A stretch of 35,827 nt of DNA from an uncultured Veillonellaceae bacterium (GTDB lineage: Bacteria > Bacillota > Negativicutes > Veillonellales > Negativicoccaceae), in assembly GCA_945876385.1 (NCBI GenBank), contig CAMCNU010000012.1, positions 1 through 35,827 on the forward strand, read 5' to 3'. Of the stretch, positions 5,142 through 23,236 are shown piece after piece. Both the position numbers and the translations under genes were made by a program. Every line of letters starts with the position of its first letter. Position 1 is the first letter of the stretch. A model generated the notes under the pieces. The model ran no database searches. It saw only the letters and a list, made by a program, of their open reading frames with translations, and was not told where the DNA came from.

Positions 5142-5326
5142 GCCGATAATAAGTCAACGCAAAGAAGGAGAATATCCGCAGTGGATGGTGCAGAGAGCAG
5201 GCGGTCGGTGTGAGCCTGTACAGACACGGCGAGGTTCCGCTCCGGAGCGGCAAATGATGAGTTTGACGGGTGCGCCCGATACCGCGCGACAAAGATGGCC
5301 GTACGGTCAATTTGGGTGGCACCGCG

Positions 5327-5360
5327 AATTCTCGTCCCAATGGGGAACGAGAATTTTTTT
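5327..5360 (+). terminator. T-box terminator 1
   Basis: AATTCTCGT (5327-5335) pairs with ACGAGAATT (5347-5355), extended by CCC/GGG, followed by seven T. It shares CTCGTCCC with antiterminator 1, so the two structures exclude each other. Confidence 0.9.
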
Positions 5361-5408
5361 GCGGCGGCATCGAGATATACCGACGGCAATCGGGGTGGTA
5401 CCGCGAGA

Positions 5409-5444
5409 AAGAGAAGCTCGTCCCTGGGGGAGGCTTCTCTTTTT
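5409..5444 (+). terminator. T-box terminator 2
   Basis: AAGAGAAGC (5409-5417) pairs with GCTTCTCTT (5433-5441), with Ts continuing to 5444. It shares CTCGTCCC with antiterminator 2. The serC ribosome binding site AGGAGG follows at 5451. Confidence 0.9.
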
Positions 5445-17079: not shown

Positions 17080-18024
17080 TTATTCGCTCCACGGGAAGGA
17101 GAACGGTACGTCCATGTAGAGCAAGTCGGTCACGCCGACGGGAGTCGGTTGTACGAGGAACAGCGATATGACCGTCAGCACCGCCATGGCGATGGCGACG
17201 AGATTGAATCCGCCGCGTCCGGACACTTCATACATACCGAAGAAGCGGACGCCGATGGTCGCCGCTACCGCGAGCACCAGCCCGGACAGTGTCAATGTGC
17301 CGTAGAGAATATGACCCGCGACAAAGACGAGAAAGACGACCGGTACGGTCACCAGCGGCAGGTAGCGCATGAGGGCGGTGTTTTTCGTACGGCTGAGATC
17401 GGTCAGCCAGTCGGACAGTTCCAAGCCGAAGGCGCCGAGCAGTACCCAGCTGCCGTAGATGACGGCATCCCAGTATGTCCGAAAGCGCGCGCGCTGCTTG
17501 CCGGCGACATAGGCGAAGGCACAGACTGCCAAGATGACCGCACCGGCGATGAGGTAGTACCAAGTCGTCGGGATGAGCGACAGCAGCAGCAAGCCGATGA
17601 CGCCTGCGGCGGTACCGGCGGCCGTCCATGTGATCCATTGGCGTTTGCCGATTTTCTCGTCGGCCGGCAATTCCGCGTACAGATAGGCCATGACCTCCAT
17701 CAGGAAGAAGCCGATAAATGCCGCAATCGCGTAAAACGGATTGATACTGATGGTCAGCACGACGAAGAGGACCGGAATCAAAATCCGCCAGCTGTGAAAA
17801 ATCCGCAGATTTTTCCACGTCAGGCGGGTATTTTGTGTATGCCGGGTCAACAACATAAAGGCCAAAAATGTCAGCATCATGCCGACGGCCTGCACGGGTG
17901 TCGCTCCGAGATACAAAATCGAGCAGAGCACGAGGATGGAGAGATTGACTCCCGTAAATCGTGCGACAATCGCTCCGAAAAAGCCGATATTCAAGTACGG
18001 CAGCATGGCGGCTAAAAAATCCAT
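17080..18024 (-). CDS. Multi-pass inner-membrane protein of unknown function
   Basis: 314 residues with about eight or nine hydrophobic segments and short charged loops. The N-terminal part (NIGFFGAIVARFTGVNLS, then GATPVQAVGMMLTFLAFML) is faintly like TauE/SafE-type permeases, but I cannot assign it firmly. The start at 18024 has AAAGGAGA correctly placed and a promoter lies upstream. A long open frame on the opposite strand is rejected because it lacks a ribosome binding site and has a shadow-type composition. The gene is alone on its strand between two terminator/promoter regions. Confidence 0.75.
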   Translation of the reverse strand: MDFLAAMLPYLNIGFFGAIVARFTGVNLSILVLCSILYLGATPVQAVGMMLTFLAFMLLTRHTQNTRLTWKNLRIFHSWRILIPVLFVVLTISINPFYAIAAFIGFFLMEVMAYLYAELPADEKIGKRQWITWTAAGTAAGVIGLLLLSLIPTTWYYLIAGAVILAVCAFAYVAGKQRARFRTYWDAVIYGSWVLLGAFGLELSDWLTDLSRTKNTALMRYLPLVTVPVVFLVFVAGHILYGTLTLSGLVLAVAATIGVRFFGMYEVSGRGGFNLVAIAMAVLTVISLFLVQPTPVGVTDLLYMDVPFSFPWSE

Positions 18025-18085: not shown

Positions 18086-18148
18086 GTCATCTGCGTGCAC
18101 GGACGACGGCGAACGCGAGGAGAAAATGATATTTTTTGCGCCAAACTC

Positions 18149-18177
18149 TTATCAACAGGGGTTTTTATTGGTATAAT
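18149..18177 (+). promoter_or_regulatory. Promoter of the heme-degradation operon
   Basis: -35 TTATCA (18149-18154), 17-base spacer, extended -10 TGgTATAAT (-10 at 18172-18177). The sequence after it (AACAATGATAAAG) is A/T-rich and faintly Fur-box-like, but not convincing. Confidence 0.7.
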
Positions 18178-18183
18178 AACAAT

Positions 18184-18309
18184 GATAAAGCCCCGTACTT
18201 ACTGACGGGAGGCTATTGTCATCAGGGTGGAATGGACAACACTATGACGATAGCCGTTTTTTATTGCCGAATATCGAAAAAGCTCGATAAAATAAAAAGG
18301 AGGGGTATT
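18184..18309 (+). promoter_or_regulatory. Structured 5' leader of the heme operon (candidate attenuator or riboswitch)
   Basis: The leader of about 125 bases contains a CCCGT/ACGGG hairpin (18192-18196 with 18205-18209). Its key arm GCTATTGTCAT (18212-18222) can pair with ATGACGATAGC (18244-18254) to make an intrinsic terminator. The same arm can pair with ATGGCAATAGC (18310-18320), the flavodoxin start codon region, over 11 positions with one G-U pair. A third option is TTGTC (18216-18220) with GACAA (18235-18239). These pairings exclude each other. It matches no riboswitch class I recognise. ATGs at 18232 and 18244 are in frame with the flavodoxin but lack a good ribosome binding site. Confidence 0.6.
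18211..18262 (+). terminator. Intrinsic terminator inside the heme operon leader
   Basis: GGCTATTGTCAT (18211-18222) pairs with ATGACGATAGCC (18244-18255), twelve pairs including one G-U, followed by G and six T. The loop is 21 bases. It lies after the promoter and before the first gene, so it would act as an attenuator. Confidence 0.7.
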
Positions 18310-18801
18310 ATGGCAATAGCAGTGGTATATGCCACCATGACAGGCAACACGAAACAAGTCGCGGACGCACTGGCGGCGGCGGTCGGCGTGACCGCGCAAA
18401 ATCTGGCGGACGCACCCGAGGTGACGGCCGATACGGTCGCGGTCGGATATTGGGTAGACAAGGGCTTGCCGAATGAAGACGCGGCAAAATTTTTGCGCAC
18501 CTTGCACGGTAAGCGCGTCTTCCTGTTCGGGACGCTCGGGGCGTCGCCCGCCACGCCGCATGCCGCAGATTGCCGGAAGGCGGCGCGTGAACTCGTCGCT
18601 GCGGACAATACGGTCATCGGTGAGTTTCTGTGCCAGGGGGCGATTGCGCCGGCACTCTTGGCGATGTTTGAAAAATTCCCGGCGGATCATCCGCATGCAC
18701 CGACACCGGAAAGTCGGGCGCGTTGGGCAGCGGCCGCCTCGCATCCCGATGCGGACGATTTGGCGGCGGCAGTGGCGGCATGGCAAGCCGCGCTGCAGTG
18801 A
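18310..18801 (+). CDS. Flavodoxin, likely electron donor to the heme-degrading radical SAM enzyme
   Basis: 163-residue flavodoxin-like protein. The FMN phosphate-binding loop TMTGNT (residues 9-14) follows the first strand IAVVYA; GTLGASP near residue 80 fits the second flavin loop. The start at 18310 has AAAGGAGGGG in place. The partner gene 14 bases downstream encodes a ChuW/HutW/HmuW-type enzyme, and in Fusobacterium the equivalent flavodoxin (HmuF) reduces that enzyme; the same role is inferred here. Relation to the BilS flavodoxins of bilirubin reduction is also conceivable, but no BilR gene is present in the window. Expression is probably controlled by the leader terminator. Confidence 0.88.
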   Translation: MAIAVVYATMTGNTKQVADALAAAVGVTAQNLADAPEVTADTVAVGYWVDKGLPNEDAAKFLRTLHGKRVFLFGTLGASPATPHAADCRKAARELVAADNTVIGEFLCQGAIAPALLAMFEKFPADHPHAPTPESRARWAAAASHPDADDLAAAVAAWQAALQ

Positions 18802-18815
18802 AAGAAGGGACATTC

Positions 18816-20492
18816 ATGACAACGACGCACGATACATTGATGGCATTGTTGGCACAAATGCCGCCGGAAGAGCGTGAGTGGATCGTCGGCCGTGATACTG
18901 CTGATGGCTTGCATCAAGCCTTCGGCAAAAAAAGGGTAGTGCATGCGGGACGCGGCGGCGTGCCGATTATGAATCCTGCCGAGCAGCAACGGCTATGGAC
19001 GGAGCTGATGGCGCAGGAGTATCGCGGAGACGGGCGGTCGGTCTATATCCACATCCCGTTTTGCGATCGCAAATGCCTGTATTGCGGATTTTTTCAAAAT
19101 TTCAGTTCCGACGAGTTGATGGACAACTACGTCGATGCGCTGGTGGAAGAGCTGGCGCAGGCGGACGGCGCGCGCCGTTTGCAAGGGCGTCCGGTGGAGG
19201 CGGTGTATTTCGGCGGCGGGACGCCGTCGGCATTGTCGGCCGCCAATCTGGGACGCATCATGCAAGCGTTGCGGCAGTACTTGCCTTTGGCAAATGATTG
19301 TGAAATCACGTTGGAAGGTCGAATCAACGACTTTACACCGGAATATGTCGACGCGGTACTCGCTTTGGGAATCAATCGGATTTCCATCGGGGTGCAGTCC
19401 TTTGATACGCGGGTGCGCAAGTCGGTCGCCCGCATTGATGACAAACAAACCGTCATCGACCGCTTGGATTACATGGTCAAGACGGGCAATGTCGCGGTCA
19501 TTATCGATTTGATGTTCGGCTTGCCGTACCAGACGATGGAAAACTGGCAGGAGGATTTGGATATCCAGTACGATTTGGGGATTCACGGCGGCGACTTGTA
19601 CCAGCTCAATATTTTCCCCGACAGCGATTTGCATCGGGCCATTGCGTCGGGCAAGCTGCCGGCGGGCGCGACGACGGCAGAGCAGGCAGACATGTTTGTC
19701 CATGCGCTCGAAGACATGCGCATGCGCGGGGCGATTAACCGTGTCGATGTGAGCCACTGGGCCAACGGCCGTCGGGAACGCTCTGTCTACAATACACTGA
19801 CGAAGGGGAATCGCGATATTATCCAGTTCGGCTGCGGCGCGGGGGGCAAGCTCTCAGGCTACGGCATGATGAATTATCGCAGTTTACCGGAGTATATCGA
19901 CGCGGTGATGGCGGGTCGCAAGCCGATTCAGTTTATGGCGGGCCCGCAAGATCATTATGCGTTTATCGGGGAAATCATGCGCCACATGGAGGGCATGTAC
20001 CTCGACGGTCGGGAACTCATGCGCAAGTGGCAGGTCAATCCGGTCGAAGAGTTGCGTCCGGTGCTGGAGATTTGGGCGCAAAAAGGCTTGGTGACGGTGG
20101 AACGGGATTTGATGCGGATGACGCCGGCCGGTCAGTTCTGGCACGACAATCTCATTCAGTCGGTCACGGAGATGATGAGCATGCTGGAACGCGAAGACGT
20201 CATTGCACCGCGGGTGGATGATGTCGCGCGGCAAGACGAGCTGCTCGACCGGCCGGAAACGGAGGTCATGCCGAAGGCGGACGATATGTTTGTCAGCATG
20301 ATGATGACGCAGATGGCCAAGTATATGGATGATGAACGATATGCGGATCATCCGCATGTCCTGATGATGAAAGAGGCGCTGGCGAAAATGGGAATGACCG
20401 ATGCGGATTTGCATTCGCCCGAACAGTTTCGCCGGTTGTCGAACACGTTGATGAATCAAATGTCTGCCTCGCCGAAACAAGGAGAGCAATGA
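18816..20492 (+). CDS. hutW: Anaerobic heme-degradation radical SAM methyltransferase (ChuW/HutW/HmuW type)
   Basis: 558-residue radical SAM protein related to HemN/HemW. The cluster motif is Cys83-x3-Cys87-x2-Cys90 (PFCDRKCLYCGF), preceded by YIHIPF; GGGTPS and GVQSFD are further family signatures. ChuW-type enzymes open heme without oxygen using SAM, give anaerobilin and release iron. Context is decisive: flavodoxin before, heme ABC transporter and TonB receptor after. Compared with known members of about 450 residues it carries an extra C-terminal segment (about 449-558) rich in methionine (for example MFVSMMMTQMAKYM). The start at 18816 is chosen for AGGGA upstream. It overlaps the next gene by four bases. 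A coproporphyrinogen dehydrogenase or HemW role is less likely. Confidence 0.88.
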   Translation: MTTTHDTLMALLAQMPPEEREWIVGRDTADGLHQAFGKKRVVHAGRGGVPIMNPAEQQRLWTELMAQEYRGDGRSVYIHIPFCDRKCLYCGFFQNFSSDELMDNYVDALVEELAQADGARRLQGRPVEAVYFGGGTPSALSAANLGRIMQALRQYLPLANDCEITLEGRINDFTPEYVDAVLALGINRISIGVQSFDTRVRKSVARIDDKQTVIDRLDYMVKTGNVAVIIDLMFGLPYQTMENWQEDLDIQYDLGIHGGDLYQLNIFPDSDLHRAIASGKLPAGATTAEQADMFVHALEDMRMRGAINRVDVSHWANGRRERSVYNTLTKGNRDIIQFGCGAGGKLSGYGMMNYRSLPEYIDAVMAGRKPIQFMAGPQDHYAFIGEIMRHMEGMYLDGRELMRKWQVNPVEELRPVLEIWAQKGLVTVERDLMRMTPAGQFWHDNLIQSVTEMMSMLEREDVIAPRVDDVARQDELLDRPETEVMPKADDMFVSMMMTQMAKYMDDERYADHPHVLMMKEALAKMGMTDADLHSPEQFRRLSNTLMNQMSASPKQGEQ

Positions 20493-21448
20493 AACGAAAG
20501 AGTGGATGGGCGGCCGCGGCGGTATTGCTAGCGGCGGCCTGTTTGTGGCTGGCCGTCGCATCGCCGGCGGAGCCGAAATCAACAGCGGCACAACTGACGG
20601 TGACGGACGCGCTGCAGCGTGAGGTCGCAATCCCCGTGCCGACGGAGCGGATTGTGTCGCTGACCAATGCCGATACGGAGACCCTGCTGGCGCTCGGCGT
20701 CAAACCGCTCGCCGTCGTGGATAATCGCAACTTGCCCGATACGCTTTCCGCCCGCTTGACGGAAGTGCCGCGGGTGGGACTGGCCACGGCGCCGAATGTC
20801 GAACAAATGGCGGCCTTGCGGCCGGACTTGGTCATCGGTACGACGATGGGGTTTCAGACGTCGCTCGCGCCGACACTGGAACAGTTGGGGATTCCCGCGG
20901 TGTTTATGAGCGTGAGCAGTTATCGGGAAATTTTGGATCGGATTACTCTTTTGGGTAAGGTCACGGGGCGGACGGATCAAGCCGCGGCGCTGACGGAGGA
21001 TATTACCCGACGGGTGGAGGCGTTGCGGACGCATTATGCGGCATTGCCGCGGCGCAAGGTGTTGATTTTGTGGGGCACGCCGGCGAGTTTTCAGCTGGCA
21101 TCGTCCCAAACCTTTATCGGCGACTTGGTGGCGCAGCTGCCGGTCGACAATGTGACGGACCGCTGGCTGGCGAATGTCCCGGCGGGCAACAAGCCCGGCT
21201 TTGTGACGTTGGATATGGAAGAAATCAGCCGTACGGATGCCGACGAGATTTTGATCGTCACGCACGGGCTGAGCCGCAATATGTCGCAACAATTTTTGGA
21301 AGAATTGCAGGCAAAACCCGCCTGGCAGCAAGTCAAAGCGGTACGGGAAGGGCATGTACACGAACTGCCCGGTGAGCTGTTTGCGTCCAATCCGAATGTC
21401 CGGGTAGCCGACGCGTTGGCCTACTTGGCGGAGGTGCTCTATGACTGA
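20489..21448 (+). CDS. Periplasmic heme-binding protein of an ABC transporter
   Basis: 319-residue substrate-binding protein of the BtuF/HmuT cluster. A hydrophobic signal (about 7-25) contains Cys18 in LAAAC, which might be lipidated although the residue at -3 is not ideal. The mature part opens with the typical DALQREVAIPVPTERIVSL, and the two-lobe fold is linked by a long helix (about 150-185). The start ATG overlaps the radical SAM stop and the end overlaps the permease by eight bases. Heme is inferred as ligand from the operon; B12 or siderophore binding is the alternative. Confidence 0.88.
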   Translation: MKRKSGWAAAAVLLAAACLWLAVASPAEPKSTAAQLTVTDALQREVAIPVPTERIVSLTNADTETLLALGVKPLAVVDNRNLPDTLSARLTEVPRVGLATAPNVEQMAALRPDLVIGTTMGFQTSLAPTLEQLGIPAVFMSVSSYREILDRITLLGKVTGRTDQAAALTEDITRRVEALRTHYAALPRRKVLILWGTPASFQLASSQTFIGDLVAQLPVDNVTDRWLANVPAGNKPGFVTLDMEEISRTDADEILIVTHGLSRNMSQQFLEELQAKPAWQQVKAVREGHVHELPGELFASNPNVRVADALAYLAEVLYD

Positions 21449-22439
21449 CAAGCGGGCGCAGATGGCGACCAAGGCGGCGTGGGCGATGCCGGTTGCGGCG
21501 GTGCTGCTGGTCGTCGGACTTTTGGTCGGGATGGGGAGCGGCACGGTACAAGTCGCCCCGGGGACGATTGTCGAGGCGCTCACGACAGGCCGTGCGCATG
21601 AGATGTATACGATTTTGTATGATATTCGCTTGCCGCGGGTGGTGGTCGGTGCGCTCGCGGGGATTAATCTGGCCTTGGCGGGGGCGATTTTGCAAGGCGT
21701 CCTGCGCAACCCGCTGGCCGACCCCGGATTGCTCGGGGTGACGGCGGGAGCCGGTCTGGCCGGGATGGTCATCATGATTCTCTTTCCCGCGCAGATGATG
21801 TGGGTGCCGCCGGCGGCCTTTATCGGGGCGATGGCGGCGACCTTCATGGTCTACGGTATCGCCTGGCGGCACGGCGTCAGTCCGCTGCGGCTGGTGCTGG
21901 CCGGTGTGGCGCTGGCGGCATTTTTCGGCGGCTTTATGACGTTGCTGACCTTCTTCTATTCCGAACGGGTGCAGGGCACGGTCAGCTGGATGGCCGGCGG
22001 TTTTTCCGGACGCAGTTGGGACTATGTCTTGCTCATCTTGCCGTATACGGCGCTGGGGCTGACCGCGACGATGTTTGCGACGAAGTCGCTGACTTTACTC
22101 AGTTTCGGTGACGATGTCGCCCGCTCGCTCGGCGTGCGGGTCGAGCGGACGCGGATATTGCTGTTGACGCTGGCCGCCTTGCTCGCGGCTTCGGCGGTCA
22201 GTGTGGCGGGGATGCTCGGTTTTGTCGGCTTAATTGTGCCGCATATCGCGCGCTTGATTGTCGGTGGCGATTTTGCCCGCTCGGTGCCGCTCGCGGCGCT
22301 GTTGGGAGCGGTCTTGATTTTGTTTGCGGATACCTTTGCGCGGACGGCGTTCAGTCCGATTGAAGTGCCGGTCGGGGTACTGATGAGCTTTATCGGCGCG
22401 CCGTTCTTCCTCTATCTCCTGCGCAAGGAGGTGGGCTGA
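21441..22439 (+). CDS. FecCD-family permease, heme ABC transporter
   Basis: 332-residue inner-membrane permease with about ten transmembrane helices. FecCD signatures include LPRVVVGALAGINLALAGAI, LRNPLADPGLLGV, GFVGLIVPHIARL and the C-terminal EVPVGVLMSFIGAPFFLYLL. It is translationally coupled to the binding protein before it (eight-base overlap) and the ATPase after it (one-base overlap). Two copies plus two ATPases should make the transporter that brings heme into the cytoplasm for the radical SAM enzyme. Confidence 0.93.
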   Translation: MTDKRAQMATKAAWAMPVAAVLLVVGLLVGMGSGTVQVAPGTIVEALTTGRAHEMYTILYDIRLPRVVVGALAGINLALAGAILQGVLRNPLADPGLLGVTAGAGLAGMVIMILFPAQMMWVPPAAFIGAMAATFMVYGIAWRHGVSPLRLVLAGVALAAFFGGFMTLLTFFYSERVQGTVSWMAGGFSGRSWDYVLLILPYTALGLTATMFATKSLTLLSFGDDVARSLGVRVERTRILLLTLAALLAASAVSVAGMLGFVGLIVPHIARLIVGGDFARSVPLAALLGAVLILFADTFARTAFSPIEVPVGVLMSFIGAPFFLYLLRKEVG

Positions 22440-23236
22440 TGGCGACACTGGAAGCACGTCATATCGCGGTCGGTTACGGAAAACATATCGTCGTGCCGGA
22501 CGCCTCGATTCGGTTTGAAACGGCGGAAATCGTGTCGATTATCGGCCCGAACGGTTCGGGTAAATCGACATTGCTCAAGGCCTTGTCCCGCTTGTTGCCG
22601 ATTGGCCGCGGGGAGGTGTGTCTGGACGAGCGTCAGATCGCTTCTTACAAAGCGCGCGAGGTCGCCCGCAAAATTGCGGTCTTGCCGCAAGGCGCGACGG
22701 CACCGCCGGACATGAATGTCTATCGTCTCGTGTCCTGCGGCCGCAGTCCGCATCACGGGTATTTTGAAGAGTATGACGAGCATGACGACGAAATTATCGA
22801 GCGGGTCATGCGCGAGACGGATGTTTGGAAGTATCGCGAACGGGCGATGTATGCGCTGTCCGGCGGCGAACGCCAGCGTGTATGGCTGGCGATGGCATTG
22901 GCACAAGAGCCGGAGATTTTACTGCTGGATGAGCCGACGACGTACCTGGATATTCACCATCAGTTGCACTTGATGGACTTGGTGGCGGAGACCCATCGGC
23001 GGCGACGGATTAGCGTCATCATGGTTTTGCACGACCTCAATCAGGCGGCGCGGTACAGTCGGCGCATCATCGCGATGAAAGACGGCGCGATTGTCGGTGA
23101 CGGTACACCGGCGGAGGTCATGACCGTCGAACACATGCGGGCGTGGTTCGGGATTCATATGAAACCGCTCGACGTGGTTGACGGGGACGACCGCTATCGG
23201 TTTTACTTACCGCTTTCCGTGGCGGGCGGCGATTAA
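22439..23236 (+). CDS. hmuV: ATPase of the heme ABC transporter
   Basis: 265-residue ABC ATPase of the FecE/HmuV type. Walker A GPNGSGKST (about 36-44), Q-loop in AVLPQGA, signature LSGGERQRV, Walker B ILLLDEPTT and the switch histidine in LHDLNQ are all present, so it should be active. AGGAGG precedes the start within the permease gene. It completes a binding protein-permease-ATPase set. Confidence 0.94.
   Translation: MATLEARHIAVGYGKHIVVPDASIRFETAEIVSIIGPNGSGKSTLLKALSRLLPIGRGEVCLDERQIASYKAREVARKIAVLPQGATAPPDMNVYRLVSCGRSPHHGYFEEYDEHDDEIIERVMRETDVWKYRERAMYALSGGERQRVWLAMALAQEPEILLLDEPTTYLDIHHQLHLMDLVAETHRRRRISVIMVLHDLNQAARYSRRIIAMKDGAIVGDGTPAEVMTVEHMRAWFGIHMKPLDVVDGDDRYRFYLPLSVAGGD

What the first reader, a model, noticed from the sequence alone, without database searches (positions are those of the whole stretch)
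18211..18320. Heme operon leader arm can pair either with a terminator arm or with the start codon of the first gene
GCTATTGTCAT (18212-18222) is complementary to ATGACGATAGC (18244-18254), forming a terminator with six T, and equally to ATGGCAATAGC (18310-18320), covering the flavodoxin start codon; both pairings span 11 positions with one G-U. A third local pairing (TTGTC/GACAA) competes. An RNA that reads through could still have its start codon masked. This looks like a control RNA for heme degradation not covered by riboswitch classes I know.
Basis: partly seen in the sequence, partly recalled or inferred. Interest (0 to 1): 0.72.

Follow-up and report, generated by a model that had tools for sequence, protein, structure and literature searches.

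The report
Possible transcription attenuator, heme-degradation operon
In one anaerobic bacterium, the RNA start of a heme-import and heme-degradation operon can fold either into a stop signal or into an alternative hairpin at its very 5' end, so it looks like an on/off attenuator; the proposed masking of the start codon is not supported, and the leader is missing in the nearest relatives available.

Summary
The sequence facts are right: GGCTATTGTCAT (18211-18222) pairs with ATGACGATAGCC (18244-18255) in front of a T-run, and 11 of its bases also match the flavodoxin start. The terminator-like hairpin is not chance (0 of 3000 shuffles). The start-codon pairing is energetically irrelevant: it costs about 8.8 kcal/mol, has probability 0.004 even with the terminator arm masked, and the leader does not change start-site accessibility. 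The transcript's own 5' end, (AT)GATAAAGCC (18182-18192), pairs with the same arm and forms a hairpin of -13.4 kcal/mol that exists until the terminator arm emerges. Promoter, 5' antiterminator, terminator, then the operon flavodoxin-HutW-heme ABC transporter: this looks like a transcription attenuator with unknown signal. The promoter is orthologous in the nearest sister genus, but the leader there is only about 21 nt with no hairpin. No homologous leader was recognised in 61 genomes of the order or 300 of the class, and Rfam has no match. No same-genus genome was available, so covariation cannot be tested. The long 21-nt loop makes termination efficiency uncertain. Probably a lineage-specific member of a known kind; a new heme-sensing RNA class is not excluded but unlikely.

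The parts
18149..18177 (+). Promoter TTATCA-17-TATAAT with TG before the -10; predicted start of transcription about 18184
   Evidence: Consensus 10/12; orthologous to the promoter of the sister genus, 36-nt alignment, p about 0.001
18182..18192 (+). 5'-end arm (AT)GATAAAGCC, partner of the switching arm in the antiterminator fold
   Evidence: Folding of growing transcripts; z -3.2 for 18184-18222; p 0.006 with upstream part shuffled
18192..18209 (+). Small 5' hairpin CCCGT-ACTTACTG-ACGGG present in the terminator fold
18211..18222 (+). Switching arm GGCTATTGTCAT: pairs with the 5' end (antiterminator) or with 18244-18255 (terminator)
18244..18262 (+). Terminator 3' arm ATGACGATAGCC followed by GTTTTTT
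   Evidence: 0/3000 shuffles; hairpin 18211-18255 is -19.9 kcal/mol with a 21-nt loop
18272..18289 (+). Inverted repeat TATCGA-AAAAGC-TCGATA between terminator and gene; weak hairpin (-5.0 kcal/mol) or possible operator; the only copy in the genome
18297..18801 (+). Ribosome-binding site and first gene, flavodoxin (start 18310), Flavodoxin_3, BilS/HmuF-like
   Evidence: Pfam PF12641 E 1e-48; NF045594 BilS 112 bits, below its cut-off of 155; only PDB match 8g64
18816..20492 (+). HutW/ChuW anaerobic heme-degrading radical SAM enzyme
   Evidence: TIGR04107, 489 bits, above cut-off 400
20489..23236 (+). Substrate-binding protein (IsdE-like, below cut-off), FecCD-type permease and ATPase: heme/iron ABC transporter

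Best explanation
The leader 18184-18309 is a transcription attenuator. RNA polymerase starts near 18184. The first 37 nt form a hairpin that holds the arm GGCUAUUGUC (antiterminator). When 18244-18255 is made, that segment can invade through the free CAU end of the arm and build the terminator hairpin in front of a U-run, so the default outcome is premature stop. If something keeps the 5' hairpin closed or delays invasion, the polymerase reads on into flavodoxin-HutW-heme transporter. Shown here: promoter match, the two mutually exclusive folds and their energies, their non-randomness, the lineage restriction. Inferred: that termination really occurs, that it is regulated, and by what; iron, heme or flavin status is only a guess from the genes.
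For: Promoter and its orthology. Terminator hairpin not chance. Antiterminator hairpin -13.4 kcal/mol, z -3.2, p 0.006, present in growing transcripts up to 18250 and replaced by the terminator at 18253. Strong RBS and flavodoxin start at 18310 downstream of the hairpin. Operon content.
Against: The 21-nt loop is unlike the other clear terminators of the window (loops of 3-4 nt), and the d'Aubenton score is negative (-22). The antiterminator depends on the start site: it weakens if transcription starts at 18185 or later. No ligand pocket or protein-binding motif is recognisable. Absent in sister genera and unmatched elsewhere in order or class, so there is no covariation.
Confidence: 0.5

Rival explanations
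1. A constitutive, unregulated partial terminator or evolutionary debris: a leader extended in this lineage carries a hairpin that lowers expression but does not switch.
For: Leader absent in the three other genomes of the family; no covariation possible; unusual loop and low terminator score.
Against: A 12-bp stem plus a T-run and a competing 5' hairpin are each non-random.
Confidence: 0.27
2. One reading: the arm terminates transcription and, in readthrough RNA, masks the flavodoxin start codon.
For: 11-bp complementarity to 18310-18320, 6 of 3000 shuffles do as well.
Against: +8.8 kcal/mol against the optimum; probability 0.004 with the terminator arm masked and 0.012 with the 5' arm masked too; opening energy of the ribosome site 3.95 kcal/mol with or without the leader. 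The start sequence is explained by its coding role (MAIAVVY, first strand of flavodoxins).
Confidence: 0.05
3. The terminator 3' arm is a relic or copy of a flavodoxin gene start, and its likeness to the real start (hence the arm's double complementarity) is a by-product of that.
For: 18244 reads MTIAVFY, in frame with MAIAVVY at 18310; profile score in the top 0.03% of positions, about 0.04 after allowing for leader length; DNA likeness p 0.06.
Against: Likeness does not extend beyond about 25 nt; significance is marginal; it explains origin only, not function.
Confidence: 0.1
4. The 78-nt promoter-terminator unit is a separate small RNA, and the operon has its own promoter (TTGCCG-18-TAAAAT, 18264-18293).
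For: Strong promoter and terminator-like hairpin; a weak second promoter-like site and an inverted repeat in its spacer.
Against: The sister genus drives the flavodoxin gene from the orthologous upstream promoter with a short leader; the second site matches only 9 of 12 positions.
Confidence: 0.08

Closest known systems
Transcription attenuators with mutually exclusive antiterminator and terminator hairpins (general kind; riboswitch-, T-box- and protein-controlled leaders; from general knowledge)
   Same: Promoter-proximal leader, competing hairpins that share one arm, terminator before the first gene
   Different: No recognisable sensor: no aptamer, specifier loop, leader peptide or known protein site; very short (about 78 nt)
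T-box leaders (RF00230), one of which is in this window before serC
   Same: AGGGTGG heptamer in the loop at 18224-18230; terminator/antiterminator logic
   Different: No stem I or specifier, no ACCGCG; no Rfam match even at E 10
hmu operon of Fusobacterium nucleatum (HmuW, HmuF; PMC10404700)
   Same: HutW/ChuW-type enzyme with a flavodoxin-family partner next to heme transport genes
   Different: Gene order; nothing about leader RNA control was found in the passages of that paper that were read

Membership tests
Transcription attenuator | Promoter upstream, intrinsic terminator before the first gene | tested here: inconclusive
   Promoter and non-random hairpin plus T-run are there, but termination is predicted only: long loop, d'Aubenton score -22
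Transcription attenuator | Antiterminator fold that excludes the terminator | tested here: met
   By prediction; depends on start at or before 18184
Transcription attenuator | Regulated readthrough | not testable with these tools
   Needs RNA or reporter data
Known riboswitch class (Rfam 15) | Match to the family's covariance model | tested here: not met
   No match at gathering score; only chance hits at E up to 10
T-box leader | Stem I, specifier loop, T-box AGGGTGGNACCGCG | tested here: not met
   Only AGGGTGG present, inside the hairpin loop; no Rfam hit
Conserved structured RNA class | Conservation and covariation in relatives | tested here: not met
   Absent in the family; no homologous leader recognised in order or class; not testable within the genus
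ANTAR-controlled leader | Two hairpins with hexanucleotide loops | tested here: not met
   Loop of the first hairpin is 8 nt, by inspection of the predicted folds

The most novel reading that the evidence does not exclude
A very small attenuator RNA that directly senses heme, iron or flavin status and controls anaerobic heme degradation, restricted to this genus.
Probability: 0.05. Interest if true: 0.7.

Novelty: new member of a known kind. Interest (0 to 1): 0.3.

Why it matters
If termination is real and regulated, it would be a simple RNA switch on an anaerobic heme-degradation operon. A search of the held paper library found no paper with the phrase 'heme riboswitch'. As it stands it is a single-genome candidate.

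Tried and rejected
Start-codon masking. Known RNA families. T-box and ANTAR resemblance. Leader peptide: the TTG at 18216 has GGGAGG only 3 nt upstream, and the ATGs at 18232 and 18244 lack a properly spaced ribosome site (by reading). Repeated element: no second copy of the leader in the genome; the three other exact ATGACRATAGCC sites were looked at and none sits in a similar hairpin-plus-T-run setting. Mobile origin: no match in phage or plasmid collections. Covariance search: best hit in the order (G047, 29 bits) is an ordinary terminator between convergent genes; 25 of 300 genomes in the class have a hit at E up to 0.1 (one of them the window's own), about what chance gives. Hairpins before other flavodoxin-hutW genes: none at the same place in the close relatives; scattered hairpins in more distant loci were not analysed further. 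Shared TTACTGAC with G002/G003 leaders: not significant.

Full report
Observation. The terminator stem is 12 bp with one G-U, loop 21 nt (with a small inner GGUG/CACU pairing), then GTTTTTTATT. Shuffles of the leader never reproduce such a stem with a T-run (0/3000), and 18184-18265 folds 5 standard deviations better than shuffles. Complementarity of 11 bp to the start region is rarer than chance for one leader (6/3000), but many leaders could have been reported.

Setting. A promoter TTATCA-17-TATAAT with TG before the -10 lies at 18149-18177. The operon is flavodoxin (PF12641, BilS/HmuF-like), HutW (TIGR04107, above cut-off), a heme-type substrate-binding protein, a FecCD permease and an ATPase. 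In Fusobacterium nucleatum a comparable flavodoxin, HmuF, carries heme to HmuW and reduces anaerobilin (PMC10404700).

Folding. Growing transcripts from 18184 first form a hairpin of the 5' end, GAUAA-AGCC-CCGU with ACGG-GA-GGCU-A-UUGUC, -13.4 kcal/mol, which holds the arm 18211-18220. At 18253 the optimum flips to the terminator, -29.0 by 18256. The 5' hairpin is better than shuffles (z -3.2), and with the arm kept and the upstream part shuffled only 0.6% do as well. It needs a start at or before 18184. Masking the terminator arm gives the switching arm back to the 5' end (probability 0.87), not to the start codon (0.004); the cost of opening the ribosome site is the same with and without the leader (3.95 kcal/mol).

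Relatives. Three other genomes of the family hold the same divergent upstream gene and the flavodoxin. In G001 (HutW 62% identical; the same contig as L044, a MAG named SUG113) the promoter is clearly orthologous (36-nt alignment, p about 0.001), but only 26 nt separate the -10 box from the ATG; in G002 and G003 42 nt do. In the window 132 nt do. None has a terminator there. Covariance models of either fold, built from this one sequence, recognise nothing comparable in 61 genomes of the order or 300 of the class beyond chance-level hits. Such single-sequence models detect only near copies. No same-genus genome was available, so the arms' conservation where it matters most is untested.

Origin. 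The terminator 3' arm and T-run, ATGACGATAGCCGTTTTTTAT, read MTIAVFY in frame with the gene start MAIAVVY.

Doubts. The clear terminators elsewhere in the window have 3-4-nt loops, and the classical terminator score is negative because of the long loop. Regulation and signal are inferred only from architecture and gene content.

Verdict. A plausible, lineage-specific transcription attenuator of unknown signal; start-codon masking not supported; no evidence for a heme riboswitch.

Noticed in passing
5153-5425: T-box leader before serC (SerC-like protein from 5464), 84.2 bits, below Rfam's gathering score of 93, so missed by the default scan; followed at 5388-5425 by a second T-box antiterminator/terminator half (24.7 bits): a semi-tandem T-box with two terminators (5327-5355 and 5409-5441).
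   Followed up: partly
18272-18289: Inverted repeat TATCGA-N6-TCGATA, single copy in the genome, between terminator and ribosome site; possible operator or weak hairpin.
   Followed up: partly
17080-18024 (minus strand): Divergent predicted protein of 314 aa with no Pfam or NCBIfam match at E 0.001; its start region is conserved next to the flavodoxin gene in the other three genomes of the family.
   Followed up: no
18136-18309: The flavodoxin reading frame stays open upstream through leader and promoter (TTG at 18136), so annotation software could call a falsely long gene.
   Followed up: no
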